64,000 bases of DNA from Fusobacterium ulcerans (GTDB taxonomy: Bacteria > Fusobacteriota > Fusobacteriia > Fusobacteriales > Fusobacteriaceae): contig NZ_CP028105.1 in the NCBI RefSeq assembly GCF_003019675.1, forward strand, positions 1,442,282 to 1,506,281, read 5' to 3'. Within the stretch, counting starts at the first letter, position 1. Each line of letters begins with the position of its first letter. Below are positions 42,409-47,809 of this stretch, piece after piece. The translations under genes and the position numbers were made by a program. The notes beneath the pieces are model-generated. The model worked only from the letters and a program-made list of their open reading frames with translations, was not told the DNA's origin and did not search any database.

Positions 42409-42471
42409 ATGAGGAAATTGAAAATTGAGCATAAGAATGAAAATGAAACAGTGATTACAAGTGAGATATAA
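42409..42471 (+). CDS. Short leader peptide overlapping the dnaG start
   Basis: ATG 42409 follows a strong site (AAAAAAGGGAGATTACC) and encodes 20 residues (MRKLKIEHKNENETVITSEI) to TAA 42469-42471. The stop overlaps the dnaG GTG start (42461) by 11 bases in another frame. dnaG itself has no good ribosome site, so translation is probably coupled through this ORF. Peptide function, if any, is unknown. Confidence 0.5.
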   Translation: MRKLKIEHKNENETVITSEI

Positions 42472-44236
42472 GTCTGAAGACATAGATATGCTGATAGAAA
42501 GCCTCAGAATAGAAGAGGTAGTCGGCGAATTTGTAGAACTGAAAAAATCAGGCTCAAGTTATAAGGGGCTTTGCCCTTTTCATCAAGATACCTCTCCTTC
42601 TTTTATGGTCAGCCCAAGCAAAAATATATGCAAATGTTTTGTTTGTGGAGCTGGTGGAAATCCTATAAAATTTTATTCTGAATATAAAAAGATAAGTTTT
42701 ATAGAAGCTGTTGAAGAACTTTCTAAAAAATATGGAATACCAATAAAAGGTACCAGAAATAGCAAAAAAAATAATGAGAATTATGATAAATATTATAAAA
42801 TAATGGAAGATGCCCACAATTTTTTTAAAGAATATATCTTTTCCAATGGTGGAAGAGAAGCTATGGAATATCTGGCAGCTAGAAAACTCAATCCAAAGAT
42901 CATAAAAGATAATGAACTGGGCTTTGCCCCAAATAAGTGGAATGAACTTAATGATCATCTTATCAGCAAGGGATATGAATTAAAAGATCTCATTGCATTA
43001 GGTCTTGTGAAAGAGAGTGAAAATGGGCAGTATGATGTATTCAGGAATAGGATTATATTTCCAATCTACTCTCCAACTGGAAAAATAATAGCCTTTGGAG
43101 GAAGAACTCTTGAAAATAATAAAGAGGTTCCTAAATATATAAACTCACCAGATACACCTATCTTTAAAAAAGGTAAGAATTTATATGGACTAGAACGTGG
43201 AAGCATGATTAAGAAAAAAAATTATGCTATGCTCATGGAAGGTTATATGGATGTACTGTCAGGGTATTTATATGGATTTGATGTAGCCCTGGCTCCTTTG
43301 GGAACAGCATTAACTGAGGAACAAGGAAAACTTCTAAAAAGATATACTTCTAATATAATACTTTCTTTTGATTCAGATGCAGCAGGGCAGTCAGCAACGG
43401 AAAGATCTGGAATGATACTAAAAACGTTAGGTTTTAATATCAGAGTTCTGGTTCTTGAAGGAGCGAAGGATCCTGATGAATATTTAAAGCTGTATGGAAA
43501 AGAAAGCTTTTTAAAGTGTGTGAAAAATTCTGTTGAAATATTTGATTTTTTATTTAAATATTATTCAAAAGAATACGATCTAAGCAACATGATGTCTAAG
43601 CAGAATTTTATAAACAGATTTAAAGAATTTTTTCAAAGTGTAGATACAGATCTTGAGAAAAGTTTGTACTTAGACAAATTGTCTAAACAGTTAAATATTG
43701 AAAAAGATATACTTAAAGAGACTTTGATAGATAAAAATAGAAAAAAATCAAGGAAAATAGAAGAAGTTTCAGAAAATATAAGTATATCAAGAGAAGAAGC
43801 AGCAAGTAAATTAGAAGAGCTTACACTTGGACTTATACTGGCTAAAAATGAATATTTTGAATATTTTAAAAATAAAAATATAAAAGGATCTTTGACTAGA
43901 AAAGTTTTTCAATATCTTAAAGAAAGAGATGAAGAATCAAATATAGTGAGAGAGCTTAAAGATAACGTTGAATTGACAAAAGCTGAAACAGATGAGTGGG
44001 AAATTGTAATCTGTATGGCTATAAATGATTTTTCTAGTGAAGAGAGAACAAATAAGTTATTAGAGGAGATATTTATCTCTTGGTTTAGAATAGAATTGAA
44101 AGAAAAACAAAGGAATAGAGAAAATATTAGTAAAACGATAGGGCTTAAAAGCATTGAATTAAAATTGAATGCAGCTGATGGTTTCTCAAAAATACTGGAT
44201 ATATATAAAGAATATGAAGAAATAGTTAATCTATAA
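42461..44236 (+). CDS. dnaG: DNA primase
   Basis: Makes RNA primers at the replication fork. 591 residues. N-terminal zinc-binding domain with CPFHQDTSPSF and CFVCGAGG (CHC2 type, about 38-66). TOPRIM domain: LMEGYMDVLSGY (catalytic Glu) and LSFDSDAAGQSA (Asp pair). C-terminal helicase-binding part is diverged. GTG 42461 gives the family N-terminus (EDIDMLIESLRIEEVVGEFV-like) but lacks a ribosome site; see the overlapping leader ORF. 24 bases before rpoD, as in the classical macromolecular-synthesis operon, but rpsU is not upstream. Confidence 0.95.
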   Translation: MRYKSEDIDMLIESLRIEEVVGEFVELKKSGSSYKGLCPFHQDTSPSFMVSPSKNICKCFVCGAGGNPIKFYSEYKKISFIEAVEELSKKYGIPIKGTRNSKKNNENYDKYYKIMEDAHNFFKEYIFSNGGREAMEYLAARKLNPKIIKDNELGFAPNKWNELNDHLISKGYELKDLIALGLVKESENGQYDVFRNRIIFPIYSPTGKIIAFGGRTLENNKEVPKYINSPDTPIFKKGKNLYGLERGSMIKKKNYAMLMEGYMDVLSGYLYGFDVALAPLGTALTEEQGKLLKRYTSNIILSFDSDAAGQSATERSGMILKTLGFNIRVLVLEGAKDPDEYLKLYGKESFLKCVKNSVEIFDFLFKYYSKEYDLSNMMSKQNFINRFKEFFQSVDTDLEKSLYLDKLSKQLNIEKDILKETLIDKNRKKSRKIEEVSENISISREEAASKLEELTLGLILAKNEYFEYFKNKNIKGSLTRKVFQYLKERDEESNIVRELKDNVELTKAETDEWEIVICMAINDFSSEERTNKLLEEIFISWFRIELKEKQRNRENISKTIGLKSIELKLNAADGFSKILDIYKEYEEIVNL

Positions 44237-44260: not shown

Positions 44261-45517
44261 ATGAGAGAGTTTATAAAAAATGAGAAGGTTCTTTCTTTAG
44301 TCAGAAAAGCGATGGAAAATAAGTTTATAACTTATGAAGAGATAAATGAGGAATTAAAAAGTGATTTTCCAGTAGAAAAAATTGAGCAGCTGATAACAGG
44401 AATGATGGAACAAGGGATCGAGATTGTAAGACAAGAAGATCTGGAAAAAGAAAAGAAACTTGCAGCATCTTTGAAAAAAGATAAAGATAAGGACAAAGAT
44501 AAAGATGAAGAACCTATTTCAAAAACTCAAGATAAAGAGGAATTTCCTGATGAAGATGAAATAGATGACCTTTTAGAAGAGAGAACAGAAGATTTAGATG
44601 ACTTTGAACATTTCAACCCAGAAGAATTGGAGGAAATAAATGAAGATGAACTTGTAAGTGATGATTTGTTTAATCTTTCAGGGGATATGAAAGTAGATGA
44701 ACCTATTAAAATGTATCTTCGTGAAATAGGACAGATTCCACTTCTTAGTCATGATGAAGAATTAGAATATGCTAAGAGAGCATTAGAAGGAGACGACTGG
44801 GCAAGTAAACAGCTGATAGAGGCAAACCTTAGACTAGTTGTAAGTATAGCTAAAAAACATACTAATAGAGGTCTTAAACTTCTTGATCTGATTCAAGAGG
44901 GAAATATAGGGCTGATGAAAGCAGTTGAAAAATTTGAATACAGTAAAGGATATAAATTTTCTACATATGCTACTTGGTGGATAAGACAAGCTATAACAAG
45001 AGCTATTGCTGACCAGGGTAGAACAATAAGAATACCAGTACACATGATAGAAACTATCAACAAGATAAAAAAAGAAGCAAGAATTTATTTGCAAGAAACA
45101 GGTAAAGATGCTACTCCAGAAGTTTTAGGTGAAAGATTGGGAATGGAAGTAGACAAGGTAAAAGCTATTCAGGAAATGAACCAAGATCCGATATCTCTTG
45201 AAACTCCAGTAGGAAGTGAAGAAGATAGTGAATTAGGAGACTTTGTTGAAGATCATAAAATGCTTAATCCATACGAACTTACAAATAGATCTCTTCTTAG
45301 AGAGCAGCTTAATGGGGTATTAAATACTCTTAGCAGCAGAGAAGAAAGAGTATTGAGATATAGATATGGTCTAGATGATGGATCACCAAAAACTCTGGAA
45401 GAAGTAGGAAAAATATTTAAAGTAACAAGAGAGAGAATAAGACAGATAGAAGTCAAAGCCTTGAGAAAACTTAGACATCCAAGCAGAAGAAAAAAACTGG
45501 AAGACTTTAAAGTGTAA
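44261..45517 (+). CDS. rpoD: Primary sigma factor (sigma-70, RpoD)
   Basis: Directs RNA polymerase to housekeeping promoters. 418 residues. Region 1.1 (about 1-60), then a charged linker with five Lys-Asp repeats (about 73-82) and an acidic run, region 1.2 ([18 protein letters not shown]), region 2 ([28 protein letters not shown]..., DNA-reading [20 protein letters not shown]), region 3, and region 4 helix-turn-helix ([17 protein letters not shown]). ATG 44261 follows AGAGGAGGCTTCAAATA. The long non-conserved insertion of proteobacterial RpoD is absent. A terminator follows. Confidence 0.97.
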
Positions 45518-45521
45518 TAAT

Positions 45522-45574
45522 TTGAGGGAGCCCCAAAAGATAAATAAAATTTATTTGGGGATTCCCTCATTTTT
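45522..45574 (+). terminator. Terminator after rpoD
   Basis: TGAGGGAgCCCCAAA pairs with TTTGGGGaTTCCCTCA, then T5. The next gene lies 25 bases after it with no clear promoter, so read-through probably feeds it. Confidence 0.88.
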
Positions 45575-45598
45575 GACTGCAAATATTATGGAGGGAAC

Positions 45599-46453
45599 AT
45601 GCAGGTATTAAGTATCAAAGAATTAGAAAAAGATATAATAACTAATTTAAGAGAAGAAGATGATTTTAGAGAATTTTTAAATGAAAATTCAAATAAAGAG
45701 TTAAAATTTGATAATCATTATACTGGATCAAAAGAACTTGAAGAAATGGATGAATTTGCAGAAGAAACTGTTATTGATTACTTAGAAGAACTTTCTAATA
45801 TGGAAGTAATAAGTGATGAAGATGAGAATAATTATCTAAAAGATTTAAGAGAGGCTGATAAAGAAAAAGTAATAGTGAAAAATCTTAATGAAGTGGCATC
45901 TATAGCTTTTAATTATGTAAAGAATGGAATAGCGTATATGGATGTAGTGCAAGAGGGAACAGTAGGGCTTATAAAAGCTGTTGATTATTTTGATCCTGAT
46001 AGAAATGGAGATTTTAAAAATTATTCAAAATATTGGATAGCTAGAGAAATAGTTCTGTATATTGAAAATAAAGTAGCAGATATTAGAAATGAATTTAAGA
46101 ATTTTTTCAAAAATAAAAAAGAAAATTTTGGAAAAGAACATCATCATGAACATGAAGAAGAAATGCATCATGATGAAGTGTACTTGAAAGAAGAAGACCT
46201 TCTTCCTACTGTTGAAGCTATTGAAAAAAGAGAAAAAATGGTAGAAAAAAGAATAGACTTTTTCTCTTTGGAAAATAGATTGAGTGAAAGACAGATAGAA
46301 GTACTAAACTATTATTTTGGATTTGGAAAAGATAAAAGATATTCTATCTTTGAAATAGAAGATGTGTTAAAATTAGAGAGTGGACAGGGAGAAAATTTGT
46401 TTCAAAGTGCTCTTTTGATACTTTCAACAGTAGAAGGGAAGATGTTTTTATGA
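45599..46453 (+). CDS. Degenerate sigma-70-like protein downstream of rpoD
   Basis: 284 acidic residues. About 88-160 match sigma region 2: VQEGTVGLIKAVDYFDP parallels [18 protein letters not shown] of RpoD, and FKNYSKYWIARE parallels [12 protein letters not shown]. About 225-275 match region 4 (RLSERQIEVLNYYFGFGKD parallels [19 protein letters not shown]). The core-binding block is kept, but residues that read the -10 box (WWIRQAIT) and the recognition helix (TRERIRQIE) are replaced. A His-rich stretch (HHHEHEEEMHHDE, 181-193) joins the halves. ATG 45599 follows GGAGGGAAC. It overlaps the next gene by four bases. It could be a non-promoter-binding sigma relative that competes for or regulates RNA polymerase; this is inference. 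It sits where Firmicutes carry trmK between rpoD and nif3, but has no methyltransferase motif. Confidence 0.75.
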   Translation: MQVLSIKELEKDIITNLREEDDFREFLNENSNKELKFDNHYTGSKELEEMDEFAEETVIDYLEELSNMEVISDEDENNYLKDLREADKEKVIVKNLNEVASIAFNYVKNGIAYMDVVQEGTVGLIKAVDYFDPDRNGDFKNYSKYWIAREIVLYIENKVADIRNEFKNFFKNKKENFGKEHHHEHEEEMHHDEVYLKEEDLLPTVEAIEKREKMVEKRIDFFSLENRLSERQIEVLNYYFGFGKDKRYSIFEIEDVLKLESGQGENLFQSALLILSTVEGKMFL

Positions 46454-47229
46454 TAACTAAAGATATAATCAACTTTCTGGAGGAAAAATATCCTAGAAGT
46501 AATGCAGAAGAATGGGATAATGTAGGTTTGCTAGTAGGAAATAATAAAAAAGATGTAAAAAAAATACAGTTGTCTATAGATGCTACAGAAAAAGCTGTAG
46601 ATTATGCAGCTCAAAATAATGTGGATATGATAGTAACTCATCATCCTCTAATATTCAAGCCGTTAAAATCTATTGTAATGTCTGAACTTTCTGGGAGAAA
46701 AATTATTAAACTTATAGAAAATGGGCTAAATCTATATTCTATACATACTAATTTGGATTCCTCAAAAGATGGATTAAATGATTATATTCTTGAACTGTTG
46801 GAAGTAAAAAAATATAAGATAATAGACATAAATGCAAATGATGAAACAGCTGGAATAGGAAGGATGTATACACTGGAAGAAAAAATAACTATTTTGGAAT
46901 ATGCTGATTTTATTAAAACAAAAATGAAAATAAAAAATGTAAGAGTAATAAGTAATGATCTAAAGTCAAAAGTGAAAAAAATAGCTTTAATCAATGGTTC
47001 AGGAATGAGTTATTGGAGAAAAGTTAAATCTTTGGGAGCAGATCTTTTTATAACTGGAGATATAGGTTATCATGATGCTTTAGATGCTAAAGAAAGTGGA
47101 CTGCATCTTATAGATATTGGACACTTTGAAAGTGAAAATTGTTTCTCAGAACTTTTAAAAAAGAATTTAGAGGAGATAGGATTGGAAGTGTTAATATTTA
47201 ATGATGGTCCTGTTTTTGAAAATTATTAA
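46450..47229 (+). CDS. Nif3-like dinuclear metal centre protein
   Basis: NIF3/YqfO family protein of 259 residues; widespread, hexameric, with a two-metal site; a GTP cyclohydrolase I type 2 label is often given without proof. EEWDNVGLLVG at the N-terminus, THHPLIFK (metal His), HTNLDSSKDGLND, and GDIGYHDALDAKESGLHLIDIGH near the end (core DIGHFESE with metal ligands). ATG overlaps the previous stop (ATGA). It is the short form without the inserted PII-like domain of YqfO. Confidence 0.9.
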   Translation: MITKDIINFLEEKYPRSNAEEWDNVGLLVGNNKKDVKKIQLSIDATEKAVDYAAQNNVDMIVTHHPLIFKPLKSIVMSELSGRKIIKLIENGLNLYSIHTNLDSSKDGLNDYILELLEVKKYKIIDINANDETAGIGRMYTLEEKITILEYADFIKTKMKIKNVRVISNDLKSKVKKIALINGSGMSYWRKVKSLGADLFITGDIGYHDALDAKESGLHLIDIGHFESENCFSELLKKNLEEIGLEVLIFNDGPVFENY

Positions 47230-47239
47230 GGAGAAAACC

Positions 47240-47809
47240 GTGAAAAAGACTTTTTTTATAATAGGACTACTAACAATATTTAATATTTCTTTTGCCAAAC
47301 TCAATGACAATTTAAAGATTTTTTCTCAAGATGAAAAAATAAAAGTAGAAAGTAAAATAACTGAATTGGAAGATAAAAGAAAACTTCATATATATGTAAA
47401 TACACTTCCAACTGATGAGGGATTCAGTGTAGCAGATCCAGAAAAAATTATTATATTAAATATAAAAAAAGATGATTCTGGAAAGAGTAAAATTGAATTA
47501 AGTTTTTCGAAAGATATAAATGTAGAAGAATGTCAAGAAGGAATAAATCTTGTTTTAGAAAATGCTGAAAATACTCTGTCTAAAGGAGAAGCGGGAAATT
47601 ATGCTGTAGAGGTTTTAGATGGAATTGATGGAGTATTAGATAAAATTGATGTAGAAGAACCAATAGTTGTAGAAGAAGAAATTGTAGATGGAGAAAAAAA
47701 TACATTTTTTATAGGAATGGGTATTGCATTTTTTATAATATTTGCTATTATATTAAGAGTGCTCTTTGTAAAGAAAAAAAGAGATAGTCAAAAAGAAAAA
47801 TCAAAATAG
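47240..47809 (+). CDS. Secreted/membrane TPM-domain-like protein
   Basis: 189 residues. GTG 47240 follows AAGGAGAAAACC and opens a clear signal peptide (MKKTFFIIGLLTIFNISFAK). The outer part (about 20-135) resembles the TPM domain (YgcG family): helix around SQDEKIKVESKITELEDK, then KLHIYVNTLPTDEGFSVADP and IELSFSKDI. A C-terminal membrane helix (about 156-176) and a basic tail follow. TPM proteins are linked to photosystem repair or unknown envelope roles; function here is open. Last protein gene before rnpB. Confidence 0.65.
   Translation: MKKTFFIIGLLTIFNISFAKLNDNLKIFSQDEKIKVESKITELEDKRKLHIYVNTLPTDEGFSVADPEKIIILNIKKDDSGKSKIELSFSKDINVEECQEGINLVLENAENTLSKGEAGNYAVEVLDGIDGVLDKIDVEEPIVVEEEIVDGEKNTFFIGMGIAFFIIFAIILRVLFVKKKRDSQKEKSK

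What the first reader, a model, noticed from the sequence alone, without database searches (positions are those of the whole stretch)
45599..46453. Sigma-70-like protein without promoter-reading residues, encoded right behind rpoD
Regions 2 and 4 of sigma-70 are recognisable by direct comparison with the neighbouring RpoD, including the QEG.GL.KAV core-binding block. The residues that read the -10 element and the region 4 recognition helix are replaced, and a His-rich segment (residues 181-193) joins the halves. It is cotranslated with a Nif3 gene. It may bind RNA polymerase without starting normal transcription: a decoy, an anti-sigma substitute, or a metal-sensing regulator. This is my best candidate for an undescribed system.
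Basis: partly seen in the sequence, partly recalled or inferred. Interest (0 to 1): 0.75.

Follow-up and report, generated by a model that had tools for sequence, protein, structure and literature searches.

The report
Promoter-blind sigma-like protein beside rpoD
Almost every bacterium in the Fusobacterium order carries, in most cases between its main transcription-start gene and the gene nif3, a second sigma-factor gene that has kept the part that grips RNA polymerase but, in most lineages, has lost parts that read DNA, so it probably controls the polymerase in some way other than starting genes.

Summary
ORF 45599-46453 (284 aa, "X") is a real sigma-70 family protein: Pfam Sigma70_r2 at 50.5 bits, family profile to solved SigA chains at E 3e-40, confident model. 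X is present in 92 of 96 Fusobacteriales genomes searched (one copy split by an IS605 element), absent in three, undetermined in one, and not seen at rpoD in two class-level outgroups. It usually sits between rpoD and nif3. Eleven members from seven basal genera are still near-complete sigma factors. The eroded forms derive from these by at least three routes. The window's clade lost region 3 and the basic recognition helix, which became an acidic G-x-G-E-x-x-F helix that is itself conserved. Leptotrichiaceae kept region 4 but lost -10-melting aromatics. All keep the class of the beta'-clamp contacts D403, Q406, E407. dN/dS is 0.09-0.18, like nif3, so it is not decaying. The His tract is not conserved. 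The best reading is an RNA-polymerase-core-binding pseudo-sigma, resembling T4 gp55+gp33 in one chain, perhaps made by read-through of a conserved terminator-like hairpin after rpoD. Core binding and non-initiation are inferred, not shown. No description was found in the papers searched.

The parts
42461..44236 (+). dnaG (primase), first gene of the macromolecular-synthesis cluster
   Evidence: orthologues in the same position in related loci
44261..45517 (+). rpoD, housekeeping sigma with regions 1.1, 1.2, 2, 3 and 4
   Evidence: Pfam r1.1/r1.2/r2/r3/r4
45523..45574 (+). terminator-like hairpin plus U-tract after rpoD, its stem ending 29 nt before the start of X; proposed attenuator that sets the X:RpoD ratio
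   Evidence: MFE -28.2 kcal/mol, z -3.84; hairpin + T-tract at this place in 34 of 52 related loci, 0.5 expected from shuffles
45590..45596 (+). Shine-Dalgarno-like GGAGGGA of X
   Evidence: sequence
45599..46453 (+). X: sigma-70-derived protein, 284 aa, net charge -29
45761..46072 (+). region 1.2 to 2.4 domain of X (residues 55-158)
   Evidence: structure match to sigma domain 2, Z up to 12.5, about 105 residues, mostly 1.7-4 A, about 32-34% identity
45929..45979 (+). region 2.2 core-binding helix of X (IAYMDVVQEGTVGLIKA, residues 111-127)
   Evidence: class of D403, Q406, E407 kept in all 19 eroded genera; dN/dS 0.04
45992..46078 (+). altered region 2.3-2.4 (W433 to Y, Y425 to G, T429 to N, R436 to A, Q437 to R, T440 to V; Y430, F427, W434 kept)
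   Evidence: net charge near 0 in the genus against +4.7 to +5.8 in RpoD and other sigmas
46139..46177 (+). His-rich linker in place of region 3 (residues 181-193)
   Evidence: disordered (pLDDT under 50); not conserved
46271..46450 (+). region 4-like domain of X (residues 225-284)
   Evidence: dN/dS 0.07
46373..46426 (+). rebuilt recognition helix (residues 259-276, LESGQGENLFQSALLILS): DNA-contact positions R584/E585/R586/R588/Q589/K593/R596/R599 replaced; new conserved G-x-G-E-x-x-F...S pattern
46450..47229 (+). nif3 (DUF34/NIF3), start overlaps the stop of X (ATGA)
   Evidence: Pfam DUF34_NIF3 285 bits

Best explanation
X is an old copy of a primary-type sigma factor, inherited with the dnaG-rpoD-X-nif3 cluster through the Fusobacteriales, that has been rebuilt from a promoter-reading factor into an RNA-polymerase-binding regulator (a pseudo-sigma). 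Its domain 2 docks on the beta' clamp helices through the kept D403/Q406/E407 face, and its region 4 docks on the beta flap. Because region 3 and the DNA-reading face of region 4 are gone and region 2.3-2.4 has lost its basic charge, the complex does not recognise ordinary promoters. By occupying the sigma (and NusG) docking sites it would limit RpoD holoenzyme, steer core toward alternative sigmas, or act on paused complexes, possibly with a partner binding the new acidic region 4 face. Its dose would be tied to RpoD because it lies behind a terminator-like hairpin that follows rpoD. Shown: descent, retained core-contact residues, lost or changed DNA-contact residues, purifying selection, conserved hairpin. 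Inferred: physical core binding, inability to initiate, effect on transcription, expression by read-through.
For: Family: Pfam r2 over cut-off; profile to SigA E 3e-40 end to end; fold Z 12.5. Retention: among 19 eroded genera weighted equally, the 8-site 2.2 set keeps RpoD's residue class at 0.84 against a background of 0.41 (permutation p 0.0002), and D403, Q406 and E407 are the only charged or polar sites kept in class in all of them. Loss: the 2.4 set keeps 0.05 (p 0.008) and the 4.2 set 0.22 (p 0.057); region 4.2 charge averages -3.8 in the window's genus against +3.6 to +4.7 in RpoD, near-complete X and other sigmas of the phylum. Not decay: dN/dS 0.09-0.18 like nif3; new residues fixed, for example E254, F268 and S276 in 28 of 28 other eroded Fusobacteriaceae members. 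Convergence: near-complete forms lie outside the eroded clade in the RpoD tree, and Leptotrichiaceae and genus g14 eroded separately. Precedent: T4 gp55 binds the beta' coiled coil and gp33 the beta flap; a gp55-gp33 fusion was called a pseudo-sigma, is nearly inactive in basal transcription, and competes with sigma70-RNAP (PMC2988020).
Against: No binding or transcription data exist here. Y430 and W434 survive in most Fusobacteriaceae, so some -10 contact may remain. In Leptotrichiaceae region 4 keeps a basic helix (Pfam r4 over cut-off), so promoter blindness is not uniform. The hydrophobic sites kept in region 4 serve the fold and do not by themselves show flap binding. The 2.3 melting set is no worse kept than background (p 0.25). 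The gene has been lost or broken in a few genomes, so it is not universally needed.
Confidence: 0.45

Rival explanations
1. X is a working alternative sigma with a changed -10 specificity that needs no -35, or needs an activator, in the way SigO needs RsoA or gp55 needs the sliding clamp.
For: Basal members keep most regions with WW and a basic recognition helix, so the ancestor was probably a working sigma; Y430, F427 and W434 are kept in the genus; the F. nucleatum consensus promoter has a pronounced -10 and a weaker -35 (PMC11005410).
Against: In the window's clade region 3 is gone, region 4.2 is acidic, region 2.3-2.4 has lost its positive charge, and region 2.4 keeps almost no RpoD residue class.
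Confidence: 0.25
2. X is a sigma mimic that titrates an anti-sigma factor, as PhyR titrates NepR, rather than binding the polymerase.
For: A sigma domain used as an anti-sigma antagonist is known in Alphaproteobacteria (papers listed); the new conserved acidic region 4 face suggests a protein partner.
Against: The strictest conservation is on the beta'-facing 2.2 residues. No candidate anti-sigma gene stands out in the cluster (dnaG, rpoD, nif3, a TPM-like protein).
Confidence: 0.1
3. X is a slowly decaying relic kept in place by operon structure and translational coupling to nif3.
For: Erosion in at least three lineages; clean loss in G018, absence in G082/G083, IS605-type insertion in G077.
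Against: dN/dS 0.09-0.18, equal to nif3; open reading frame kept in every aligned member; new residues fixed across genera; X persists in L022/L023 where nif3 has left the locus.
Confidence: 0.1
4. X is a metal-sensing regulator through its His tract, linked to Nif3.
For: 5-9 His in 20 residues in most of the window's closest relatives and in L048/L053.
Against: Tract absent in most members, including several of the same genus (L015, L016, L019, L020); disordered in the model.
Confidence: 0.03

Closest known systems
Sigma-70 family, groups 1/2 (RpoD/SigA, RpoS)
   Same: Homologous along regions 1.2, 2 and 4; gene next to rpoD; basal members keep most regions including region 3
   Different: Region 3 lost, region 4.2 acidic, -10 reading set changed, strongly acidic protein in the window's clade
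Phage T4 gp55 + gp33 (split pseudo-sigma)
   Same: Works-like: domain-2 docking on the beta' coiled coil plus a flap-binding sigma4 mimic that does not read -35
   Different: X is one chain, homologous to sigma in both parts, cellular; a sliding-clamp motif was not looked for; gp33 has no sequence similarity to sigma (PMC2988020)
PhyR (sigma factor mimicry)
   Same: Sigma domain used for regulation instead of initiation
   Different: PhyR carries a response-regulator domain and targets the anti-sigma NepR; X has no receiver domain and keeps the core-binding face
Bacillus subtilis SigO-RsoA
   Same: Sigma function divided so that one protein lacks part of DNA reading
   Different: Two proteins; X carries both halves (comparison from own knowledge; papers only listed)

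Membership tests
Sigma-70 family (homology) | significant match to sigma-70 region 2 | tested here: met
   PF04542 50.5 bits, cut-off 24; profile to SigA E 3e-40
Sigma-70 family (homology) | region 4 helix-turn-helix domain | tested here: met
   no Pfam r4 hit on the window protein, but end-to-end profile alignment through region 4, HTH helices 250-256 and 263-276 in the model, Pfam r4 over cut-off in basal and Leptotrichiaceae members
Functional promoter-reading sigma factor | basic recognition helix with -35 contacts (R584, E585, R588, Q589) | tested here: not met
   S, G, E, N in the window; helix charge -1.5 mean in the genus against +4 in RpoD
Functional promoter-reading sigma factor | -10 melting aromatics and W wedge | tested here: inconclusive
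   Y430, F427, W434 kept; W433 to Y, Y425 to G
Functional promoter-reading sigma factor | initiation of transcription with core RNAP | not testable with these tools
   needs in vitro transcription
RNAP-core-binding protein (sigma domain 2 type) | beta' clamp-helix contact residues D403, Q406, E407 | tested here: met
   residue class kept in all 19 eroded genera
RNAP-core-binding protein (sigma domain 2 type) | physical binding to core | not testable with these tools
PhyR-type sigma mimic | response-regulator receiver domain fused to ECF-like domain | tested here: not met
   no receiver domain found by Pfam or NCBIfam

The most novel reading that the evidence does not exclude
A whole bacterial order uses a one-chain, cellular pseudo-sigma, coupled to rpoD by read-through of a terminator-like hairpin, that grips RNA polymerase without reading promoters, and sigma factors have been converted into such regulators at least three times independently inside this order.
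Probability: 0.4. Interest if true: 0.85.

Novelty: new variant of a known kind. Interest (0 to 1): 0.62.

Why it matters
If X binds core RNAP without starting transcription, it is a natural example of a sigma factor turned regulator, present in nearly all Fusobacteriales genomes searched, in a phylum whose transcription control is little known. The graded series from near-complete to eroded forms makes the steps of that conversion directly testable.

Tried and rejected
Metal-sensor reading: rejected as a family trait. Pseudogene: rejected by dN/dS and fixed new residues. Horizontal or phage origin: PHROGs gives mainly a generic sigma family, and the X tree broadly follows the RpoD tree, though deep branches are long and their placing is unsure. 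The search for related loci on genome contigs with the single protein found nothing; with the genus alignment it found three Fusobacteriaceae records (one named Fusobacterium mortiferum) plus four stretches outside the phylum that match only part of X, which I take to be ordinary sigma factors without having checked them, so presence outside the phylum is not excluded. Consensus promoter scan was uninformative (37 found, 39.7 expected). VIA-align of the Leptotrichiaceae model gave a best Z of only 8.2, not decisive alone.

Full report
Observation. The ORF 45599-46453 is real. Its region 2 matches Pfam Sigma70_r2 at 50.5 bits, cut-off 24, with no region 3 or 4 hit in Pfam. A profile of 58 orthologues aligns end to end with solved SigA chains, E 3e-40. 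AlphaFold gives mean pLDDT 83.7, pTM 0.83, with both sigma halves folded and residues 182-196 disordered. Domain 2 superposes on sigma domain 2 of solved holoenzymes at Z up to 12.5, about 105 residues, mostly 1.7-4 A, about 32-34% identity for the best rows. Foldseek's first 50 matches are all sigma factor chains. I call the protein X.

Distribution. Searching 98 genomes of the phylum and reading the loci: of 96 Fusobacteriales genomes, X is found in 92, three lack it (G018, G082, G083), and one is undetermined because rpoD lies at a contig end (G056). One of the 92 copies (G077) is split by an insertion whose 417 aa ORF is an IS605-type OrfB. In G018 rpoD is followed directly by nif3. Two class-level outgroups (G001, G097) have rpoD without X behind it. 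The order dnaG-rpoD-X-nif3-TPM-like gene is kept in most Fusobacteriaceae, usually with a 4-base X/nif3 overlap; in Leptotrichiaceae rpoD-X-nif3 is kept without the overlap. Exceptions: genus g14 carries about 3.7 kb between rpoD and X; some Leptotrichiaceae-family genomes show only X-nif3 in the stretch read (L100-L102, L104, L106), and L103 shows neither neighbour; two genomes (L022, L023) have lost nif3 from the locus but keep X.

Descent and erosion. Eleven members from seven genera (332-356 aa) are near-complete sigmas. Of the five scanned with Pfam (L052, L047, L051, L063, L055), all match r2 and r4 over cut-off, three match r3 over cut-off with the other two just below, and one matches r1.2 over cut-off. 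All eleven keep W433, W434 and Y430, and their recognition-helix charge averages +3. On the RpoD tree these genera lie outside the clade that holds the window. Eroded forms therefore arose at least three times: in the window's clade, in genus g14, and in Leptotrichiaceae. The damage differs. In the window's clade region 3 is lost, W433 is mostly Y, F, L or I, Y425 is mostly G, and the recognition helix mostly reads K/R-G-x-G-E-x-x-F, with 4.2 charge -3.8 in the genus (RpoD +4.7). In most Leptotrichiaceae W433 is N and W434 is F but region 4 stays basic (+2.4). Deep branches of the X tree are long, so exact counts of events are uncertain.

What is kept. Weighting 19 eroded genera equally, the region 2.2 core set keeps RpoD's residue class at 0.84 against 0.41 background (p 0.0002), whereas region 2.4 keeps 0.05 (p 0.008) and the 4.2 DNA set 0.22 (p 0.057). 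The melting set (0.33) is not distinguishable from background (p 0.25). D403, Q406 and E407 are the only charged or polar sites kept in class in every eroded genus; the other fully kept sites are hydrophobic. The functional assignment of these residues is from established sigma-70 work (own knowledge).

Selection. Among the four closest species dN/dS for X is 0.09-0.18, for nif3 0.15-0.20, for rpoD 0.01-0.03. Within X it is 0.04 in region 2.2 and 0.07 in region 4. Residues of region 4 that differ from RpoD and from all near-complete forms are fixed in the clade: E254, F268 and S276 in 28 of 28 other eroded Fusobacteriaceae members, G264 and G280 in 93%, E265 in 89%. Region 4 has thus been rebuilt and then frozen, which argues for a new partner rather than decay.

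Expression. After rpoD lies a strong hairpin with a U-tract (MFE -28.2, z -3.84). Related loci have a terminator-like hairpin in the same place, with different sequence, in 34 of 52 cases against 0.5 expected from shuffles (mononucleotide shuffles, my own scan); it usually ends about 30 nt before X, in some loci 2 nt or more than 60 nt before it. In the short gaps there is little room for a separate promoter, so read-through from rpoD is the likely source of X. This is inference; a promoter inside rpoD or overlapping the hairpin is possible.

Mechanism. The best reading is a core-binding pseudo-sigma. T4 offers a tested parallel: gp55 docks on the beta' coiled coil, gp33 on the flap, and a gp55-gp33 fusion was almost inactive in basal transcription and competed with sigma70-RNAP (PMC2988020). 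X would be a single-chain, cellular counterpart. It could lower RpoD holoenzyme, help alternative sigmas, or compete with NusG at the clamp helices (shared docking site: own knowledge). Which of these holds is open. The main rival is an alternative sigma that needs an activator; it cannot be excluded because Y430, F427 and W434 remain in the window protein.

The anatomy is confirmed, the metal idea is not.

Noticed in passing
window 45523-45574 and the same place in L009-L059: Terminator-like hairpin directly after rpoD, recurring in structure but not in sequence across Fusobacteriaceae, typically about 30 nt before the X start codon.
   Followed up: partly
L113 2808-4061 (G077): IS605-type OrfB (Cas12f1-like TNB domain) ORF lies inside X in one Leptotrichiaceae genome, splitting it after about residue 71.
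   Followed up: yes
L022, L023: nif3 is missing between X and the TPM-like gene in two genomes of a sister genus while X stays.
   Followed up: no
L107 587-2700 (G018): Clean loss of X: rpoD is followed directly by nif3, although two other genomes of the same genus keep a very divergent X.
   Followed up: yes
L047-L059, L063, L064: In the basal genera Nif3 is longer (326-366 aa) than in Fusobacterium (259 aa), suggesting an inserted domain that the window's clade lacks, much as it lacks region 3 of X.
   Followed up: no
window 47201-47809: Gene after nif3 resembles a TPM-domain protein (PF04536, just under cut-off) with a hydrophobic C-terminal segment; travels with the cluster.
   Followed up: no
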